A model generated the notes under the pieces. It had not been told where the DNA came from. It saw only the letters and a list, made by a program, of their open reading frames with translations, and did not search any database. Made by a program: the position numbers and the translations under genes. This document shows positions 1-12,803 of a stretch of 64,000 bases of DNA, piece by piece; the first letter of the stretch is position 1, and each line of letters starts with the position of its first letter. This DNA comes from Pseudomonas iridis (GTDB taxonomy: Bacteria; Pseudomonadota; Gammaproteobacteria; Pseudomonadales; Pseudomonadaceae): positions 1-64,000 of the forward strand of contig NZ_JACXXO010000006.1 in the NCBI RefSeq assembly GCF_017980685.1. The letters are read 5' to 3'.

Positions 1-229
1 TCCAGACTTCGATGAACTGAAGCGACCTCTCTCGAAACCTACTTAACTCATTGAATCTCAAGGAGTTTTCCGTTTCGACTGCGCCGGAAGTGGGGCGAAT
101 TATAGACGTCTGGAATCTGCCGTCAACAGCTAATTTCGCTTTTCTTTCAATTACTTGCAGATCGATCAAGAAACGACCAACCCCCCCTATATATAGAGGG
201 GAACGCTAAGCCTTCTATATAGAAGGAGC
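1..229. other. Intergenic region at window edge, no gene seen
   Basis: No convincing open reading frame or RNA gene is visible. The stretch is fairly AT-rich for this genome around 110-180. It ends with two AT-core palindromes directly downstream of the leftward CoA-transferase gene. A feature continuing from beyond the left edge cannot be excluded. Confidence 0.5.
184..226 (-). terminator. Two successive palindromes after gcdG
   Basis: A perfect 16-base palindrome CCTTCTATATAGAAGG (211-226) begins 4 bases after the gcdG stop. It is followed, in the direction of transcription, by an imperfect CCCC/GGGG palindrome with a TATATA core (184-201). They could fold as hairpins at the mRNA 3' end, but there is no clear U-tract, so the terminator call is tentative. 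Confidence 0.4.
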
Positions 230-1450
230 TCAGAGCACTCCATCCTCTTTCAGCGCGACCACCGCTCCCGCCCCCAGCCCCAAGACTCGCTGCAACACCT
301 CCAACGTATGTTCGCCCAACAAAGGAGGCGCAAGGCGATACTCGACAGGGGTTTGCGACATTCGAATAGGACTTGCCACCTGAGGCACCATCCCCGCCAA
401 CGCATGGGGCAACTCTATTGCCAGCCCGCGCGCCTTCACCTGCGGGTCCTCAAACACCTGCGACAGATCATTGATCGGGCCACATGGCACACCCGCCATC
501 TCCAACTGAGCTACCCACTCAGCCGTGGTCTTGAAGACTGTCGCCTGACGAATCAGAGGAATCAGCACGGCACGATTCGCCACCCGTAGCTTATTAGTAG
601 CGAAGCGCGGATCATCAGCCCACTGCGGCTGACCCGCCACTTCAGCAAACTTGCGGAACTGCCCGTCATTGCCCACGGTAAGGATGAAATCACCATCTGC
701 CGTAGGAAAGTCCTGATAAGGCACGATGTTCGGATGCGCATTGCCCAGGCGCTTGGGTGCATTGCCCGTGGTCAGGTAGTTCATCGCCTGGTTAGCCAGG
801 CAGGCTACCTGCACATCCAGCAATGCCATATCAATGTGCTGACCACCACCGTCGTGATCACGATGAGCCAGCGCCGCCAGTATCGCCACGGTCGAATACA
901 GCCCGGTCAGGATATCCGTTAGCGCCACACCAACCTTCACCGGCCCGGCACCTTCATCTCCTTCTGGCCGACCGGTCAGACTCATCAGCCCACCCAACCC
1001 CTGGATCATGAAGTCGTAACCGGCACGCTTGGCATAGGGCCCGGTCTGGCCGAAGCCAGTGATCGAGCAGTAGATCAGATCCGGATTGATAGCCTTCAGC
1101 GACTCATAGTCCAACCCATAAGCCGCCAGACCACCCACCTTGAAGTTCTCAATGAGGATGTCCGACTTGGCAGCGAGCTCGCGAACAAGCTTTTGGCCCT
1201 CGGGACGCGTGAAGTCGATGGTCACCGATTGCTTGTTGCGATTGGCCGAAAGGTAGTAAGCCGCCTCCGACGTGTTCTCACCATAAGCGTCCTTAAGGAA
1301 GGGCGGCCCCCAGGCGCGAGTGTCATCACCATTGCCGGGGCGCTCGACCTTGATCACTTCGGCGCCGAGGTCGGCGAGAATCTGCCCGGCCCATGGCCCG
1401 GCCAACACTCGCGATAAATCCAGTACCCGCAGATGCGACAGCGCGCCCAT
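230..1450 (-). CDS. gcdG: CaiB/BaiF family CoA-transferase (probable glutarate CoA-transferase)
   Basis: The 406-residue product is a full-length class III (formyl-CoA transferase type) CoA-transferase. The N-terminal LRVLDLSRVLAGPWAGQ and the following DLGAEVIKVE match the nucleotide-fold start of this family. It probably transfers CoA to glutarate, feeding glutaryl-CoA to the dehydrogenase encoded 13 bases upstream. The two genes form an operon (gcdHG) next to a LysR regulator, the arrangement known for lysine/glutarate catabolism in P. putida. The substrate is inferred from that context; the family alone does not fix it. Confidence 0.88.
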   Translation of the reverse strand: MGALSHLRVLDLSRVLAGPWAGQILADLGAEVIKVERPGNGDDTRAWGPPFLKDAYGENTSEAAYYLSANRNKQSVTIDFTRPEGQKLVRELAAKSDILIENFKVGGLAAYGLDYESLKAINPDLIYCSITGFGQTGPYAKRAGYDFMIQGLGGLMSLTGRPEGDEGAGPVKVGVALTDILTGLYSTVAILAALAHRDHDGGGQHIDMALLDVQVACLANQAMNYLTTGNAPKRLGNAHPNIVPYQDFPTADGDFILTVGNDGQFRKFAEVAGQPQWADDPRFATNKLRVANRAVLIPLIRQATVFKTTAEWVAQLEMAGVPCGPINDLSQVFEDPQVKARGLAIELPHALAGMVPQVASPIRMSQTPVEYRLAPPLLGEHTLEVLQRVLGLGAGAVVALKEDGVL

Positions 1451-9056: not shown

Positions 9057-9275
9057 ATGGAACGTACACTCAGTTCCGAACTGTTCTTCGAAGACAAAGC
9101 TGCAAAAACCCAGGCTTCCATGCCTCTGCGCGTTCTCGCCAACCTGATGTTGTGGCAGCGCCGCATCTCCAGCCGCCACCAATTGGCCCGCCTGGATTCG
9201 CGTCTGCTGGCTGACGCCGGTATCAGCGAAGCACAACGCTACGAAGAGCTGAGCAAGCCGTTCTGGCGCTAAGTA
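9057..9275 (+). CDS. Small DUF1127 protein
   Basis: The 71-residue protein has the DUF1127 (YjiS-like) C-terminus: a tryptophan/arginine segment WQRRISSRHQLARLDSRLLADAGIS then a short tail. Such proteins are small, basic and often stress- or phosphate-responsive; their function is mostly unknown. The ATG at 9057 fits a GGAAGG site nine bases upstream; the in-frame ATG at 9048 overlaps that site and is unlikely. It is monocistronic, with a strong terminator downstream and an unusual box-rich upstream region. Confidence 0.85.
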
Positions 9276-9330
9276 GCGTCGCTGGCTCTGGTCGTTAGAC
9301 CCACCGCCAGCAACCCGAATTGAATAAAAC

Positions 9331-9363
9331 AAAACCCGTCGTGGGAAACCACGACGGGTTTTG
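9331..9363 (+). terminator. Rho-independent terminator after the DUF1127 gene
   Basis: AAAACCCGTCGTGG and CCACGACGGGTTTT form a 14-bp stem with a GAAA loop. The A and T ends make it potentially active in both directions. Confidence 0.92.
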
Positions 9364-9443
9364 TCGTTCTGGATGCTTCAAAACCGCAGAATAGACGCTT
9401 CGAGATTAAAACAAGCACAGTTTTAGTTTTATCAACATTCATA

Positions 9444-9608: not shown

Positions 9609-9926
9609 ATGACCCGTCTTCGCATGCTCAGCGCCGCAGCCCTGTTGGCCGTGGCTGCCAACGCCAGCGCTACCAGCTTCATCGTGACCACTGACTCGAT
9701 TGTCGGCGCCCTGAAAGCCTCCTCCGACGCTACTTCCGACGTCACCTCTTCCTTCCGTGACGACAAGATCGTGCTCGCTGCCCGTGACGACGCAGCCAGC
9801 TTCGTCGCCAGCCAAGGCGACATCCGAGGCGTGAAACTGGAAAGCGCGCTGGATCACATTCGTCATCAGGCGCCACAACTGCAAGCCACCGACGCTCAGT
9901 TGGCTCAGGCCATTCTGACTATCTAA
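9609..9926 (+). CDS. DUF2388 family exported protein 1
   Basis: A 105-residue protein with a Sec signal peptide (cleavage probably after NASA at about residue 20). The mature part contains the motif DDAASFVASQGDIRG followed by a short helix-rich tail ending LAQAILTI. Two similar genes follow at once (10034 and 10385), so this is a tandem family leading into a DUF4105 gene. The ATG at 9609 gives a clean signal peptide; earlier in-frame starts do not. Function is unknown, and a periplasmic location is inferred. Confidence 0.82.
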   Translation: MTRLRMLSAAALLAVAANASATSFIVTTDSIVGALKASSDATSDVTSSFRDDKIVLAARDDAASFVASQGDIRGVKLESALDHIRHQAPQLQATDAQLAQAILTI

Positions 9927-10033
9927 GCAGTCGCGGCATGGCGGGGCACGCCGGTCGTGTCCCGATATTTCGGCGCTGGCTCTAGTCCGGGCATTGCGCT
10001 AGCCTTACGGCTCGCCAACAGTTGCCGAGTCCC

Positions 10034-10342
10034 ATGCCTTTTATTCAAAAACTCCTGATCCCTTGCGTATTGTTAACTGCTTGCTGGACGACCTCGGCCA
10101 ACGCCTTCGACGTCTCCACGCAAAACACCGTGGTGAGCGTCTGGGCGACCGGCATGGTGTCTTCCGCGCCGTTCGACCGTAAACTGCTGCTCGTCGCTCA
10201 CGATGATGCGGCGGTGTTTGTTGCCAGTGACGGAGAATTGCGCGGCGCTCGATTGGAATCCGCACTGCACTACCTGCGTAAAACCCGGCCGAAACTTCAT
10301 GCCAGCGACCTTGAACTGGCAGAGGCAATTCTCGTCCAATAG
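10034..10342 (+). CDS. DUF2388 family exported protein 2
   Basis: A 102-residue paralog of its neighbours, with signal peptide (…WTTSANA) and the motif HDDAAVFVASDGELRGARLESALHYLR. It is the most divergent of the three copies. A TTG at 10022 could add four residues, but the ATG at 10034 gives a normal signal peptide. It lies between the other two copies on the same strand and is probably co-transcribed. Function is unknown. Confidence 0.78.
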   Translation: MPFIQKLLIPCVLLTACWTTSANAFDVSTQNTVVSVWATGMVSSAPFDRKLLLVAHDDAAVFVASDGELRGARLESALHYLRKTRPKLHASDLELAEAILVQ

Positions 10343-10384
10343 TTAACCCAGTCCCTTGTTAACTTTGCCCTTCGGAGTCGTTCC

Positions 10385-10705
10385 ATGCGTAGCCCGCTGA
10401 TTGCTGCCGCCCTTGGCCTGTTTTTATTGGCCGACCTGGCCCAGGCCCAAACCCTGGTAGCCACCAGTAACATCATCGTTCGTGCCTCCCAGCGCACCAT
10501 TGATTTCACGTCTGATACCACCACGTCGATTCGCGACTCGAAAATCATCCGCGAAGCCCACGACGACGCCGCCAGCTTTGTCGCCAGCAAGGGTGATATC
10601 CGTGGTGCGCACCTGGAAGCCGCTCTCAACACCTTGCGCACACGCGTGCCGGAAGCTCGCGACGCCAGTGATCAGGTTCTCGCCGAAGCCATCCTCGCAC
10701 TGTGA
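10385..10705 (+). CDS. DUF2388 family exported protein 3
   Basis: A 106-residue paralog with signal peptide ending …LAQAQT and the motif AHDDAASFVASKGDIRGAHLEAAL, ending LAEAILAL. It has a GGAG ribosome site. Its TGA stop overlaps the GTG start of the DUF4105 gene (GTGA), so the two are translationally coupled, which argues for a shared function in the cell envelope. Confidence 0.82.
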   Translation: MRSPLIAAALGLFLLADLAQAQTLVATSNIIVRASQRTIDFTSDTTTSIRDSKIIREAHDDAASFVASKGDIRGAHLEAALNTLRTRVPEARDASDQVLAEAILAL

Positions 10706-12663
10706 AGTCACTTGGCGCCTGGCTACTGGCCGGGGCGTTGTTGCTACTTGGCAACAGCGCCTACGCCGGCCTGCAATTGCGGCTCAAGACCGACGGTCTG
10801 AGCCCCGCCCAGCAACAGGCCAGCCAGGCGCTGATCGATGAAGCCATGCAGGCCTTGCCGCCGAGCTTTATCGAGCGGCTGGATCGGCGCATCGATGTCG
10901 GCTGGACCGATGACATGCCCGGCAATGCCTATGGCCAGGCAACCCTGGTCGCCGAACTCGATCTGAACCGCAAATTGCTCGCCAGTCTCACCGACGGCAG
11001 CGCGGCCAAAGAGAAGACCAATCGCCCCCACGGCACTGTGCGCCAGGAACTGCTCGCCACGGTGCTGCACGAAATCACCCACATTTATGACCGCGCACGC
11101 CTCTGGCCAAACGCCGAGCGCACGCTGATCCAGCGCTGCACCCGGCGCTTCAACAGTGTCGGGCTGATCGGCATTCCCGATGAGTGCCGTGGCCAGAACG
11201 GGCGCCGCTTCACCCTTAGTGATGACCCGCGATTGCTCGACCTCGCCGGGTGGCCGCAATACGTCGGCCGTCGCGGCGAGCGCGAGCAACACAACCGACA
11301 GATTGCCCGCAGCCCGGACCTGTACGAAATCTCCAGTCCCAAGGAGTTCGTCGCGGTCAACATGGAGTACTTCCTGCTCGACCCGAGCTACGCGTGCCGC
11401 CGCCCGGCGCTGTATCGCTACTACAAGGATCACTTCGGCTGGGCACCACCGGCCCCGAATTCCTGCGCCAAGACCTTTGCGTTTCTGAACGCCGGCAACG
11501 ATTTCGCCAAGCAACCATTGGGGCAAGTCGATCCGGAGCGTGTCTACGCCGTCGATTATTTACTGGCCGAGGCCAATCAGAACTGGGTCAGCCGCTGGGG
11601 TCACAGCATGTTGCGTCTGGTGATCTGTGCACCGGGGCGTCCGCGTGGCCCGGATTGCCGGCTCGATCTGGATCAACATCTGGTGCTGTCCTACCGCGCT
11701 TTCGTCGGTGATGTGCAGTTGTCGAGTTGGGACGGATTGGTCGGTAAATACCCCTCTCGGCTGTTCGTCCTGCCGTTGGCGCAGGTGATCGACGAGTACA
11801 CCAAGACCGAACTGCGCAGCCTCGCCTCGGTACCGCTGAATCTGTCGCGCAGCGAGATCGAAGGCGTGGTCGAACATGCCGCCGAGATGCATTGGAGCTA
11901 CGACGGCAACTATTTCTTCCTGTCCAATAACTGCGCAGTGGAAGGCTTGAAACTGTTGCGCAGCGGCAGCAACAACGCGCAACTCACCGGCCTCGACAGC
12001 ATCATGCCCAACGGTCTGCTGGAAGTGCTCAAGGGCCGTGGTCTGGCCGACACCAGCGTGCTGGATGATCCGAAAGAAGCGCTGCGTCTGGGCTATCGCT
12101 TCGACTCGTTCCGCGATCGCTATCAAGCGATGTTCGACGTGCTGAAGAAGCAGCTGCCAATCAAACAGAACACCGTTGAGGAGTGGCTTTCGTTGTCGGC
12201 CGAAGAACGCCGCGAATGGTTCGATCGCGCCGACCTGCGCACCAGCGCCGCGCTGTTGCTGCTGGAGCAGGCCAGTTTCCGTCGCCAGTTGTTGCTCGCG
12301 CAGGACGAGGTCAAACAGCGTTACCTCGGTGCGCGGGAACTGGAGAATGGCGGAATGGACAAGGCCAATGCGACCTTGCAGGAAATCCTCGCCAACAGTG
12401 GGTTCCTCAGCCGTCCGGCAGAACTGCTGGATTCGAAAGGCTACGGTTTGCCGCAACCCAGCGAGTTCAGCCGACTGGAAACGGAAAGCAGCCAGCGGCA
12501 GAAGAAGCTGCTGTTACTCAGCGGCGACCTCGACAAGGAAGTGCGTAAGTTGCTGGAACCCAAGCGCGCCGCCGAAATTGCCGCCAGTGAGGCCAACGTG
12601 AAACAGATCGGCGAGCATTTGCGCAAACTGCACAAGGCGTCCGGCGGGCTGGAGCTGCCGTAA
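10702..12663 (+). CDS. Exported protein with HExxH zincin motif and DUF4105 domain
   Basis: A 653-residue protein with a signal peptide (cleavage near residue 22, SAYA). An N-terminal region contains VLHEITHIYDR (HEITH at about 123-127) with acidic residues in SPKEFVAVNMEYF at about 213-224 as possible third ligands, as in zinc peptidases. From about residue 285 a DUF4105 (Lnb_N-like) domain follows with WGHSMLRL (His 301) and LSNNCAVEG (Cys 411), spaced like a cysteine-hydrolase His/Cys pair. The C-terminal 200 residues are helical and charged. The GTG start overlaps the preceding stop. The enzymatic roles are inferred from motifs only. Confidence 0.82.
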   Translation: MKSLGAWLLAGALLLLGNSAYAGLQLRLKTDGLSPAQQQASQALIDEAMQALPPSFIERLDRRIDVGWTDDMPGNAYGQATLVAELDLNRKLLASLTDGSAAKEKTNRPHGTVRQELLATVLHEITHIYDRARLWPNAERTLIQRCTRRFNSVGLIGIPDECRGQNGRRFTLSDDPRLLDLAGWPQYVGRRGEREQHNRQIARSPDLYEISSPKEFVAVNMEYFLLDPSYACRRPALYRYYKDHFGWAPPAPNSCAKTFAFLNAGNDFAKQPLGQVDPERVYAVDYLLAEANQNWVSRWGHSMLRLVICAPGRPRGPDCRLDLDQHLVLSYRAFVGDVQLSSWDGLVGKYPSRLFVLPLAQVIDEYTKTELRSLASVPLNLSRSEIEGVVEHAAEMHWSYDGNYFFLSNNCAVEGLKLLRSGSNNAQLTGLDSIMPNGLLEVLKGRGLADTSVLDDPKEALRLGYRFDSFRDRYQAMFDVLKKQLPIKQNTVEEWLSLSAEERREWFDRADLRTSAALLLLEQASFRRQLLLAQDEVKQRYLGARELENGGMDKANATLQEILANSGFLSRPAELLDSKGYGLPQPSEFSRLETESSQRQKKLLLLSGDLDKEVRKLLEPKRAAEIAASEANVKQIGEHLRKLHKASGGLELP

Positions 12664-12667
12664 AGGC

Positions 12668-12736
12668 AAAAGATCGCAGCCTGTGGCAATTCCTACAAAG
12701 GTCACATGTAGGAGCTGCAACAGGCTGCGATCTTTT
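12668..12736. repeat. REP pair, GATCGCAGCCTG type
   Basis: AAAAGATCGCAGCCTG on the left and CAGGCTGCGATCTTTT on the right form a long inverted repeat around TGTAGGAGCTGCAA. It lies between the converging DUF4105 and trpA genes and ends in T-runs on both strands, so it likely terminates both. The same type occurs at 51417-51494. Confidence 0.85.
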
Positions 12737-12803
12737 GACTGACTAACGATTAATCCAGAACCCCGGTGCCCAGGCACTTTCCTCTGAACCAGGAACTCTA
12801 CCT

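What the first reader, a model, noticed from the sequence alone, without database searches (positions are those of the whole stretch)
9609..12663. Three tandem DUF2388 paralogs coupled to a large exported DUF4105 protein
Three small exported proteins share DDAAxFVASxGxxRG and are followed by a 653-residue exported protein whose start overlaps the last stop. Tandem copies coupled to one putative enzyme suggest a cell-envelope system in which the small proteins may be substrates, inhibitors or partners of the large one. No function is known for either family.
Basis: partly seen in the sequence, partly recalled or inferred. Interest (0 to 1): 0.65.

Follow-up and report, generated by a model that had tools for sequence, protein, structure and literature searches.

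The report
Double-headed envelope enzyme with small partners
In the bacterial genomes sampled here, a family of small exported proteins was found only together with one large exported enzyme that joins a protein-cutting type of domain to a fatty-acid-transfer type of domain, and models predict that the two bind, so the small proteins are probably its dedicated substrates or helpers.

Summary
In detail: three DUF2388 genes, then a 653-residue exported protein whose GTG overlaps the last stop by 4 nt. The large protein is DUF7844 (MtfA/PPEP-like HExxH metallopeptidase type) plus Lnb_N, formerly DUF4105, reported as the Bacteroides lipoprotein N-acyltransferase, so 'no function known' is outdated for that half. 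Coupling holds well beyond this genome. In 69 Pseudomonadaceae genomes both families are in the same 59; in 396 phylum genomes the same 29 carry both over cut-off. A DUF2388 gene lies directly upstream of the enzyme in 58 of 59 loci, and in 20 of 20 in a second family. Each of the 59 has one enzyme gene and 1-8 DUF2388 genes. AlphaFold2 of a relative's read-through fusion folds a DUF2388 helical core and, judged from pTM, docks it on the enzyme; the Ser/Thr-rich, cysteine-free tail stays at low confidence. Other full-length Lnb_N genes have a different small exported gene upstream (DUF3015, 43 of 56), similar in layout but without detectable homology. Best reading: dedicated docking partners, perhaps substrates presenting the tail. 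Substrate, activator and inhibitor are not told apart. New variant of a known kind.

The parts
9329..9364. perfect 16-bp hairpin with a 4-nt loop; terminator-like in my reading (short T run, not listed by the scan); upstream border of the unit
9609..9926 (+). DUF2388 copy A, exported by eye, 105 aa
10034..10342 (+). DUF2388 copy B, exported by eye (TTG start at 10022 also possible); its middle-position relatives form one clade, 13 of 13, UFBoot 100
10385..10705 (+). DUF2388 copy C, the copy next to the enzyme; stop overlaps the enzyme start
10448..10534 (+). Ser/Thr-rich tail of copy C (residues 22-50); low confidence in the model of a relative; as conserved as the core in subfamily C
10702..12663 (+). 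653-aa exported enzyme, GTG start
10774..11454 (+). DUF7844 domain, MtfA/PPEP-like metallopeptidase type
11068..11082 (+). HEITH zinc motif, residues 123-127; the two His and the Glu are invariant in 62 of 62 aligned enzymes
11509..12009 (+). Lnb_N (former DUF4105) domain, permuted NlpC/P60 type
11602..11604 (+). catalytic-type His301, invariant 62 of 62
11932..11934 (+). catalytic-type Cys411, invariant 62 of 62
12664..12740. inverted repeat, 34-nt arms, 88% complementary; downstream border (not listed by the scan)

Best explanation
DUF2388 proteins are dedicated docking partners of one exported two-headed enzyme. SHOWN: joint presence and absence, adjacency with overlapping or near-overlapping genes, both active-site sets invariant in the enzymes aligned, a cysteine-free Ser/Thr-rich tail. 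PREDICTED: the helical core of DUF2388 binds the enzyme, possibly on the face of the Lnb_N sheet away from the catalytic cysteine, leaving the tail free. INFERRED: the tail reaches an active site and is the acceptor that the Lnb_N domain modifies, most likely by acylation of Ser/Thr or of an amino terminus, possibly after or together with cutting by the metallopeptidase domain. Paralogues A, B, C and the dispersed D type would be alternative substrates of the same enzyme.
For: Pseudomonadaceae: DUF2388 in 59 of 69 genomes, DUF7844 in the same 59, with both states inside at least three genera. Phylum: the same 29 of 396 over cut-off. Family f11: DUF7844 in 21 of 60, DUF2388 in 20 of those 21. 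Adjacent: 58 of 59, 20 of 20 and 80 of 80 loci. One enzyme gene and 1-8 DUF2388 genes per genome in the 59. Of 8 single-copy genomes, 7 keep the copy next to the enzyme; in the eighth (G312) the enzyme contig is a 3.2-kb fragment. Fusion model (L153, enzyme 70% identical to the window's): pLDDT 87.2, pTM 0.87; ten-residue means 80, 95, 95, 92 and 95 for 51-100, and 47, 49 and 36 for 21-50. By my arithmetic 0.87 fits a docked core (0.873 at 2 A error, 20 A for unplaced residues) better than an undocked one (0.817; 0.852 at zero error). Tail Ser+Thr 31-52% against 6-9% in the core; tail as conserved as the core in classes C (0.71 against 0.65) and D (0.65 against 0.64). No cysteine after residue 25 in 84 of 84 aligned partners. 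DUF3015 has a similar layout and docks by the same reasoning (pTM 0.85).
Against: No activity or interaction measured. The docking rests on one fused-chain model per pair, without coordinates, PAE or a negative control; the model also draws a helix at 22-41 of the tail, at low confidence. The tail is less conserved than the core in classes A (0.47 against 0.66), B (0.55, 0.65), single copies (0.45, 0.68) and f11 (0.64, 0.71), and no tail residue is invariant across the 84. The only hint on position (3kw0 alignment starting at model residue 74) also suits a structural subunit. Enzyme G009 (L209) has no Pfam DUF2388, only a weakly similar small exported gene. About 89 of 216 DUF2388 genes lie outside the cluster. 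Another paper guessed from context that DUF4105 supports resistance transporters or translocation (passage of PMC10318531).
Confidence: 0.42

Rival explanations
1. DUF2388 is a non-catalytic subunit or activator: its helices complete the Lnb_N fold, and paralogues are interchangeable subunits that tune specificity or timing.
For: Mutual dependence and overlapping genes. The 3kw0 alignment (Z 9.5, 138 aligned, 3.1 A) spans model 74..580 against chain 13..195 (only first and last residues are given); chain residue 13 precedes beta1 near Asp25, so it should lie in the N-terminal helix region, on the sheet face opposite the catalytic helix (section 6 of PMC3142127); the enzyme model lists no helix between 358 and 392. 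Precedent for a two-protein acyl transferase: LnsA and LnsB (passages of PMC7387801).
Against: Does not explain the Ser/Thr-rich tail, nor up to 8 copies per enzyme.
Confidence: 0.3
2. DUF2388 is an inhibitor or immunity-like safeguard that holds a potentially self-harming periplasmic enzyme silent.
For: Enzyme hardly ever seen without it; the partner gene comes first, with overlapping genes; sister clade of a toxin acyltransferase domain according to PMC12994826 (passage).
Against: Predicted dock is not clearly at an active site; one enzyme with up to 8 inhibitors, some dispersed, would be unusual; no secretion genes recognised by eye among the neighbouring ORFs.
Confidence: 0.15
3. Mere genomic neighbours: a conserved locus without direct functional link.
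For: None beyond the general inheritance of gene order.
Against: Joint presence and absence inside several genera and in a second family; dispersed copies too are absent from the sampled genomes that lack the enzyme.
Confidence: 0.03

Closest known systems
Lnb, lipoprotein N-acyltransferase of Bacteroides (DUF4105 / Lnb_N)
   Same: Lnb_N domain over cut-off, His and Cys of the permuted NlpC/P60 type, exported (function from a passage of PMC12994826)
   Different: No membrane segment after the signal peptide; fused to a metallopeptidase-type domain; DUF2388 partner; no lipoprotein activity known
DUF3015 + DUF7843-Lnb_N-DUF7840 pair (second Lnb_N gene of the same genome)
   Same: Small exported partner encoded directly upstream, Ser/Thr-rich low-confidence segment then helical core, predicted docking
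   Different: Partner not detectably homologous (Prob 11.9); the enzyme ends in a modelled 12-strand barrel and lacks DUF7844
LnsA/LnsB of Staphylococcus aureus
   Same: NlpC/P60 enzyme that needs a second protein, remotely like CAAX metalloproteases, for acyl transfer (passages of PMC7387801)
   Different: LnsB is a polytopic membrane protein whose catalytic motifs have diverged; a DUF2388-like partner is not mentioned in the passages seen
MtfA (M90) and PPEP-1/Zmp1 metallopeptidases
   Same: HExxH, downstream Glu, fold
   Different: Not fused to an acyltransferase-type domain (recalled)

Membership tests
DUF2388 (PF09498) | profile score over the curated cut-off | tested here: met
   110.4, 91.0 and 104.4 bits against 25
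Lnb / DUF4105 (PF13387) | Lnb_N profile over cut-off | tested here: met
   95 bits against 22.2
Lnb / DUF4105 (PF13387) | catalytic-type His before Cys (permuted NlpC/P60) | tested here: met
   H301 and C411 invariant in 62 of 62 aligned; VIA Z 9.9 to TseH, 153 aligned, 4.3 A
Lnb / DUF4105 (PF13387) | membrane part after the periplasmic domain, as the Pfam name implies (recalled for Bacteroides Lnb) | tested here: not met
   best 19-residue hydropathy starting after residue 30 is 0.99
Lnb / DUF4105 (PF13387) | N-acylation of lipoproteins | not testable with these tools
   needs mass spectrometry
M90/MtfA-type metallopeptidase | HExxH plus downstream Glu | tested here: met
   H123, E124, H127, E215 and E222 invariant in 62 of 62
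M90/MtfA-type metallopeptidase | sequence or fold relationship | tested here: met
   profile against PDB: 9srw E 3.6e-4, 3dl1 E 1.2e-3; VIA 3dl1 Z 8.8, 158 aligned, 3.5 A, 22% identity. Against: Pfam M90 itself 16.8 bits, below its cut-off of 26.2
DUF3015 partner family | sequence homology with DUF2388 | tested here: not met
   hhalign Prob 11.9 over 15 columns
Effector-immunity pair | linked to secretion or conflict genes | tested here: inconclusive
   neighbours read by eye as metabolic genes (trpA, trpB and others); not surveyed across loci

The most novel reading that the evidence does not exclude
Lnb_N-type enzymes work with dedicated small exported acceptor proteins (DUF2388, DUF3015): the partner core docks and its flexible Ser/Thr-rich tail is acylated, giving a class of lipid-modified bacterial proteins outside the Lgt/Lsp pathway (cysteine-free in the DUF2388 case); in the DUF7844 version a metallopeptidase domain on the same chain trims or releases them.
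Probability: 0.17. Interest if true: 0.88.

Novelty: new variant of a known kind. Interest (0 to 1): 0.62.

Why it matters
It ties a function-less Pseudomonas family, present in up to eight copies per sampled genome, to one enzyme of a class recently linked to lipoprotein acylation, and shows that a second function-less family (DUF3015) sits in the same position beside most of the other full-length members of that class that were surveyed. That turns three unknown families into one testable question: is the small partner the substrate, the activator or the brake? If the tail is acylated, bacteria have a route to lipid-modified envelope proteins that annotation by lipobox misses.

Tried and rejected
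Common ancestry of DUF2388 and DUF3015: not supported by hhalign (Prob 11.9), although both models give a helical core of similar element order. Mobile or phage origin: copy C has no match at E 1e-5 in 50,697 phage or 72,556 plasmid records; the enzyme has only partial, under 30% identical matches in 7 plasmid-collection records. One consistent neighbour of the dispersed DUF2388 copies: not seen. My profile and ORF caller found the gene in 9 of 14 fetched loci; read by eye, a gcvP-like gene lies beside it in 2, an OsmC-like one in 2, and similar large or NfeD-like ORFs recur in a few, but none in all; the other 5 gave no call. Plain Foldseek gave no PDB match with E below 0.7; in the viral library the best was one uncharacterised protein, E 9e-4, TM 0.17; the VIA matches are second looks at Foldseek's list, and also include the lethal-factor catalytic domain, which shares the metallopeptidase fold. 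Weak DUF2388 matches below cut-off in four genomes (G382, G457, G459, G544): the one I read (G459, L254) shows no DUF4105-type ORF or signal peptide by eye within its 3.1 kb; I take it as chance. Two class genomes (G058, G077) have DUF7844 below cut-off and no DUF2388. The consensus scan found no promoter and one terminator-like site on the minus strand, both below the shuffle means, and did not list the two border hairpins. A P. aeruginosa tag, PA3785, recalled by me as DUF2388 but not verified here, was reported as tobramycin-induced, with altered biofilm recovery after gentamicin in a transposon mutant (passages of PMC10100978); used only as a lead. Papers: ten seen as passages or single sections, none in full (PMC12994826, PMC10318531, PMC6034422, PMC11963402, PMC10100978, PMC4665194, PMC6050968, PMC12345273, PMC3142127, PMC7387801). 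No paper found holds both DUF2388 and DUF4105 (4 papers with one of them); family accessions gave 0 papers, DUF3015 gave 1, not opened, guessed locus tags 0 with two or more of six. These cover open-licence PMC papers only.

Rows dropped before counts: one search kept 61 of 161 enzyme ORFs (under 88% identity to those kept, 400 aa or more); the alignment of 62 leaves out one of these (L210) and adds two close relatives; one search left out 3 of 49 DUF3015 frames with short matches; one search found an Lnb_N ORF in 55 of 66 loci (11 short or divergent ones missed) and one search set aside 2 fragments of 58 frames, leaving 56, one of them without upstream room. The tree used 106 sequences; its 7 class D members are 6 of the 9 copies found plus one from L099 (L376, L380 and L386 not used); class A was not a clean clade (23 of 28, support 62) and class C had support 54. 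One search failed (thread setting) and was repeated. One search lists only part of its match rows; the per-genome counts are complete and were summed from the table; the 127 in-cluster genes come from my own profile, the 216 from Pfam. Mended on checking: tail conservation equals the core's only in classes C and D, so I lowered the substrate reading from 0.45 to 0.42, raised the subunit reading from 0.28 to 0.30 and lowered the novel case from 0.18 to 0.17.
Full report
Observation. The last DUF2388 stop and the enzyme start overlap by 4 nt. The unit is bordered by two hairpins, 9329-9364 (perfect 16-bp stem) and 12664-12740 (34-nt arms, 88% complementary), which fits, but does not prove, one transcript; the consensus terminator scan did not list them.

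What the large protein is. Pfam gives DUF7844 (residues 25-251) and Lnb_N (270-436), the renamed DUF4105. DUF7844 is a metallopeptidase-type domain: a profile of 62 enzymes finds two PDB sequences, both MtfA-type (9srw E 3.6e-4; 3dl1 E 1.2e-3), and the model's residues 127-359 (fusion numbering) align with Zmp1/PPEP-1 (Z 10.2, 149 aligned, 3.0 A) and 3dl1 (Z 8.8, 158 aligned, 3.5 A, 22% identity). H123, E124, H127, E215 and E222 are invariant in 62 of 62. The Lnb_N part aligns with TseH (Z 9.9, 153 aligned, 4.3 A), and H301 and C411 are invariant in 62 of 62. DUF4105 was reported as the Bacteroides lipoprotein N-acyltransferase Lnb (passages of PMC12994826), and permuted NlpC/P60 structures have hydrophobic pockets, one holding a fatty acid (passages of PMC3142127). 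There is no membrane segment beyond the signal peptide. So this looks like a soluble, exported, two-headed enzyme; neither activity has been tested.

Coupling. In 69 Pseudomonadaceae genomes DUF2388 is found in 59 and DUF7844 in 59, and the two lists are identical, with the same 10 genomes lacking both. Presence varies inside genera g264 (2 of 6), g252 (5 of 7) and g257 (4 of 5), always jointly. In 396 genomes of the phylum the same 29 carry both over cut-off; below cut-off there are 4 DUF2388-only and 10 DUF7844-only genomes, the latter with frames of about 270-290 aa that I take as stand-alone MtfA-like, since E. coli also rings. In a second family (f11, unnamed by the tool) DUF7844 is in 21 of 60 and DUF2388 in 20 of those 21; the exception, G260, is 87% complete and its enzyme is cut by a contig end. 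In 232 genomes of the class, 5 have DUF7844 over cut-off and 4 of these DUF2388; two more have DUF7844 below cut-off and no DUF2388. The fifth, G009, has a small exported, Ser-rich gene directly upstream of the enzyme that Pfam does not recognise; 8 of 4,952 scored shuffles of it do as well against the DUF2388 profile, a hint only (hhalign Prob 6.7).

Adjacency. Directly upstream (within 120 nt), same strand: 58 of 59 Pseudomonadaceae loci (the miss is a 3.2-kb contig), 20 of 20 f11 loci and 80 of 80 close Pseudomonas loci; the median gap is -4, -1 and -4 nt. The 20 f11 genomes have one DUF2388 gene each. The 59 Pseudomonadaceae have 1-8 per single enzyme gene, 216 in all by Pfam, 127 of them in the cluster by my profile. 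Of the 8 genomes with only one, 7 have it next to the enzyme, and in the eighth the enzyme contig is a fragment.

Anatomy of the partner. A signal peptide by eye, a Ser/Thr-rich tail (31-52% Ser+Thr by class, against 6-9% in the core) and a helical core with invariant A62, A63, G70, L99 and A100. There is no cysteine after residue 25 in 84 of 84, so these are not ordinary lipoproteins. The tail is as conserved as the core in classes C and D, less so in A, B, single copies and f11. In a tree of 106 sequences the middle copy (B, 13 of 13) and a chosen set of dispersed copies (D, 7 of 7) are clades with UFBoot 100; C is 28 of 28 plus two single copies (support 54); A is not clean. At least the B type is therefore older than the split of the genera that carry it.

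Model of the pair. AlphaFold2 of a relative's natural locus (L153, enzyme 70% identical to the window's) in which copy C and the enzyme lie in one frame, with the stop read through, gave pLDDT 87.2 and pTM 0.87. Ten-residue means are 80-95 for 51-100 of the core, 36-49 for 21-50 of the tail (a helix is drawn there without confidence) and 27-32 in the linker. Arithmetic on pTM, assuming 2 A error for ordered and 20 A for unplaced residues: 0.873 if the core is docked, 0.817 if not, 0.852 if not and the rest is perfect. So the model places the core on the enzyme. One VIA row (3kw0, Z 9.5) runs from model residue 74, in the DUF2388 core, which suggests that a DUF2388 helix lies where the fold's N-terminal helix sits, on the sheet face away from the catalytic helix. 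This is indirect: no coordinates or PAE were available and there was no negative control.

A parallel pair. The second Lnb_N gene of the genome (DUF7843-Lnb_N-DUF7840) has DUF3015 directly upstream. In a class-wide survey (Lnb_N in 60 of 232 genomes), a DUF3015 gene, by a profile grown from that one, lies upstream of 43 of 56 full-length Lnb_N frames. DUF3015 also has a Ser/Thr/Asn/Gly-rich segment of low pLDDT that is more conserved (0.36) than its own helical core (0.28) in 36 sequences; the fused model gives pTM 0.85, against 0.830 expected if docked and 0.755 if not. The two partner families are not detectably homologous, so either they diverged beyond recognition or the arrangement arose twice.

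Mechanism. A docking core plus a flexible, hydroxyl-rich, cysteine-free tail on an enzyme of a lipid-acting class suggests an acceptor substrate. Up to eight partners per enzyme, none found without it in the samples, fits 'one enzyme, several substrates'. The main rival is an activating subunit that completes the Lnb_N fold; precedent for a two-protein acyl transferase is LnsA/LnsB (passages of PMC7387801). An inhibitor is possible but less favoured. Published data on DUF2388 found here are one expression table entry, PP_3743, about 5-fold up in a racemase mutant (passage of PMC6034422), and a cluster label (passages of PMC11963402).

Verdict. Observation confirmed, coupling strongly supported, mechanism open. 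New variant of a known kind: Lnb_N enzymes with dedicated small exported partners.

Noticed in passing
L373 4166-6601 (G000 C9), also L007: Second Lnb_N protein of the genome ends in DUF7840, modelled as a 12-strand outer-membrane-type barrel (VIA Z up to 14.6 to Tsx, 196 aligned, 3.8 A) and ending in aromatic residues; it would put an acyltransferase-type domain at the outer membrane, with DUF3015 as partner.
   Followed up: partly
L209 479-799: Small exported Ser-rich gene directly upstream of a distant DUF7844-Lnb_N enzyme, unrecognised by Pfam as DUF2388; possible divergent member.
   Followed up: partly
L376 4740-5174: A very divergent DUF2388 copy of the same genome (37.2 bits) away from the cluster.
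   Followed up: no
window 9057-9272: Short DUF1127 protein upstream of the cluster, separated from it by a perfect hairpin.
   Followed up: no
L320 and L327: 13 of 56 full-length Lnb_N frames lack DUF3015 upstream; in these two loci a different small exported ORF ends inside the extended open frame ahead of the Lnb_N domain.
   Followed up: no
plasmid records NZ_CP041590.1 and NZ_CP131880.1: DUF4105-type proteins about 30% identical to this one over 28% of its length are carried on Acinetobacter plasmids.
   Followed up: no
genomes G301, G316 and G326 (genus g260): About 3.2-3.3 Mb genomes with 8, 6 and 7 DUF2388 genes, high for their size.
   Followed up: no
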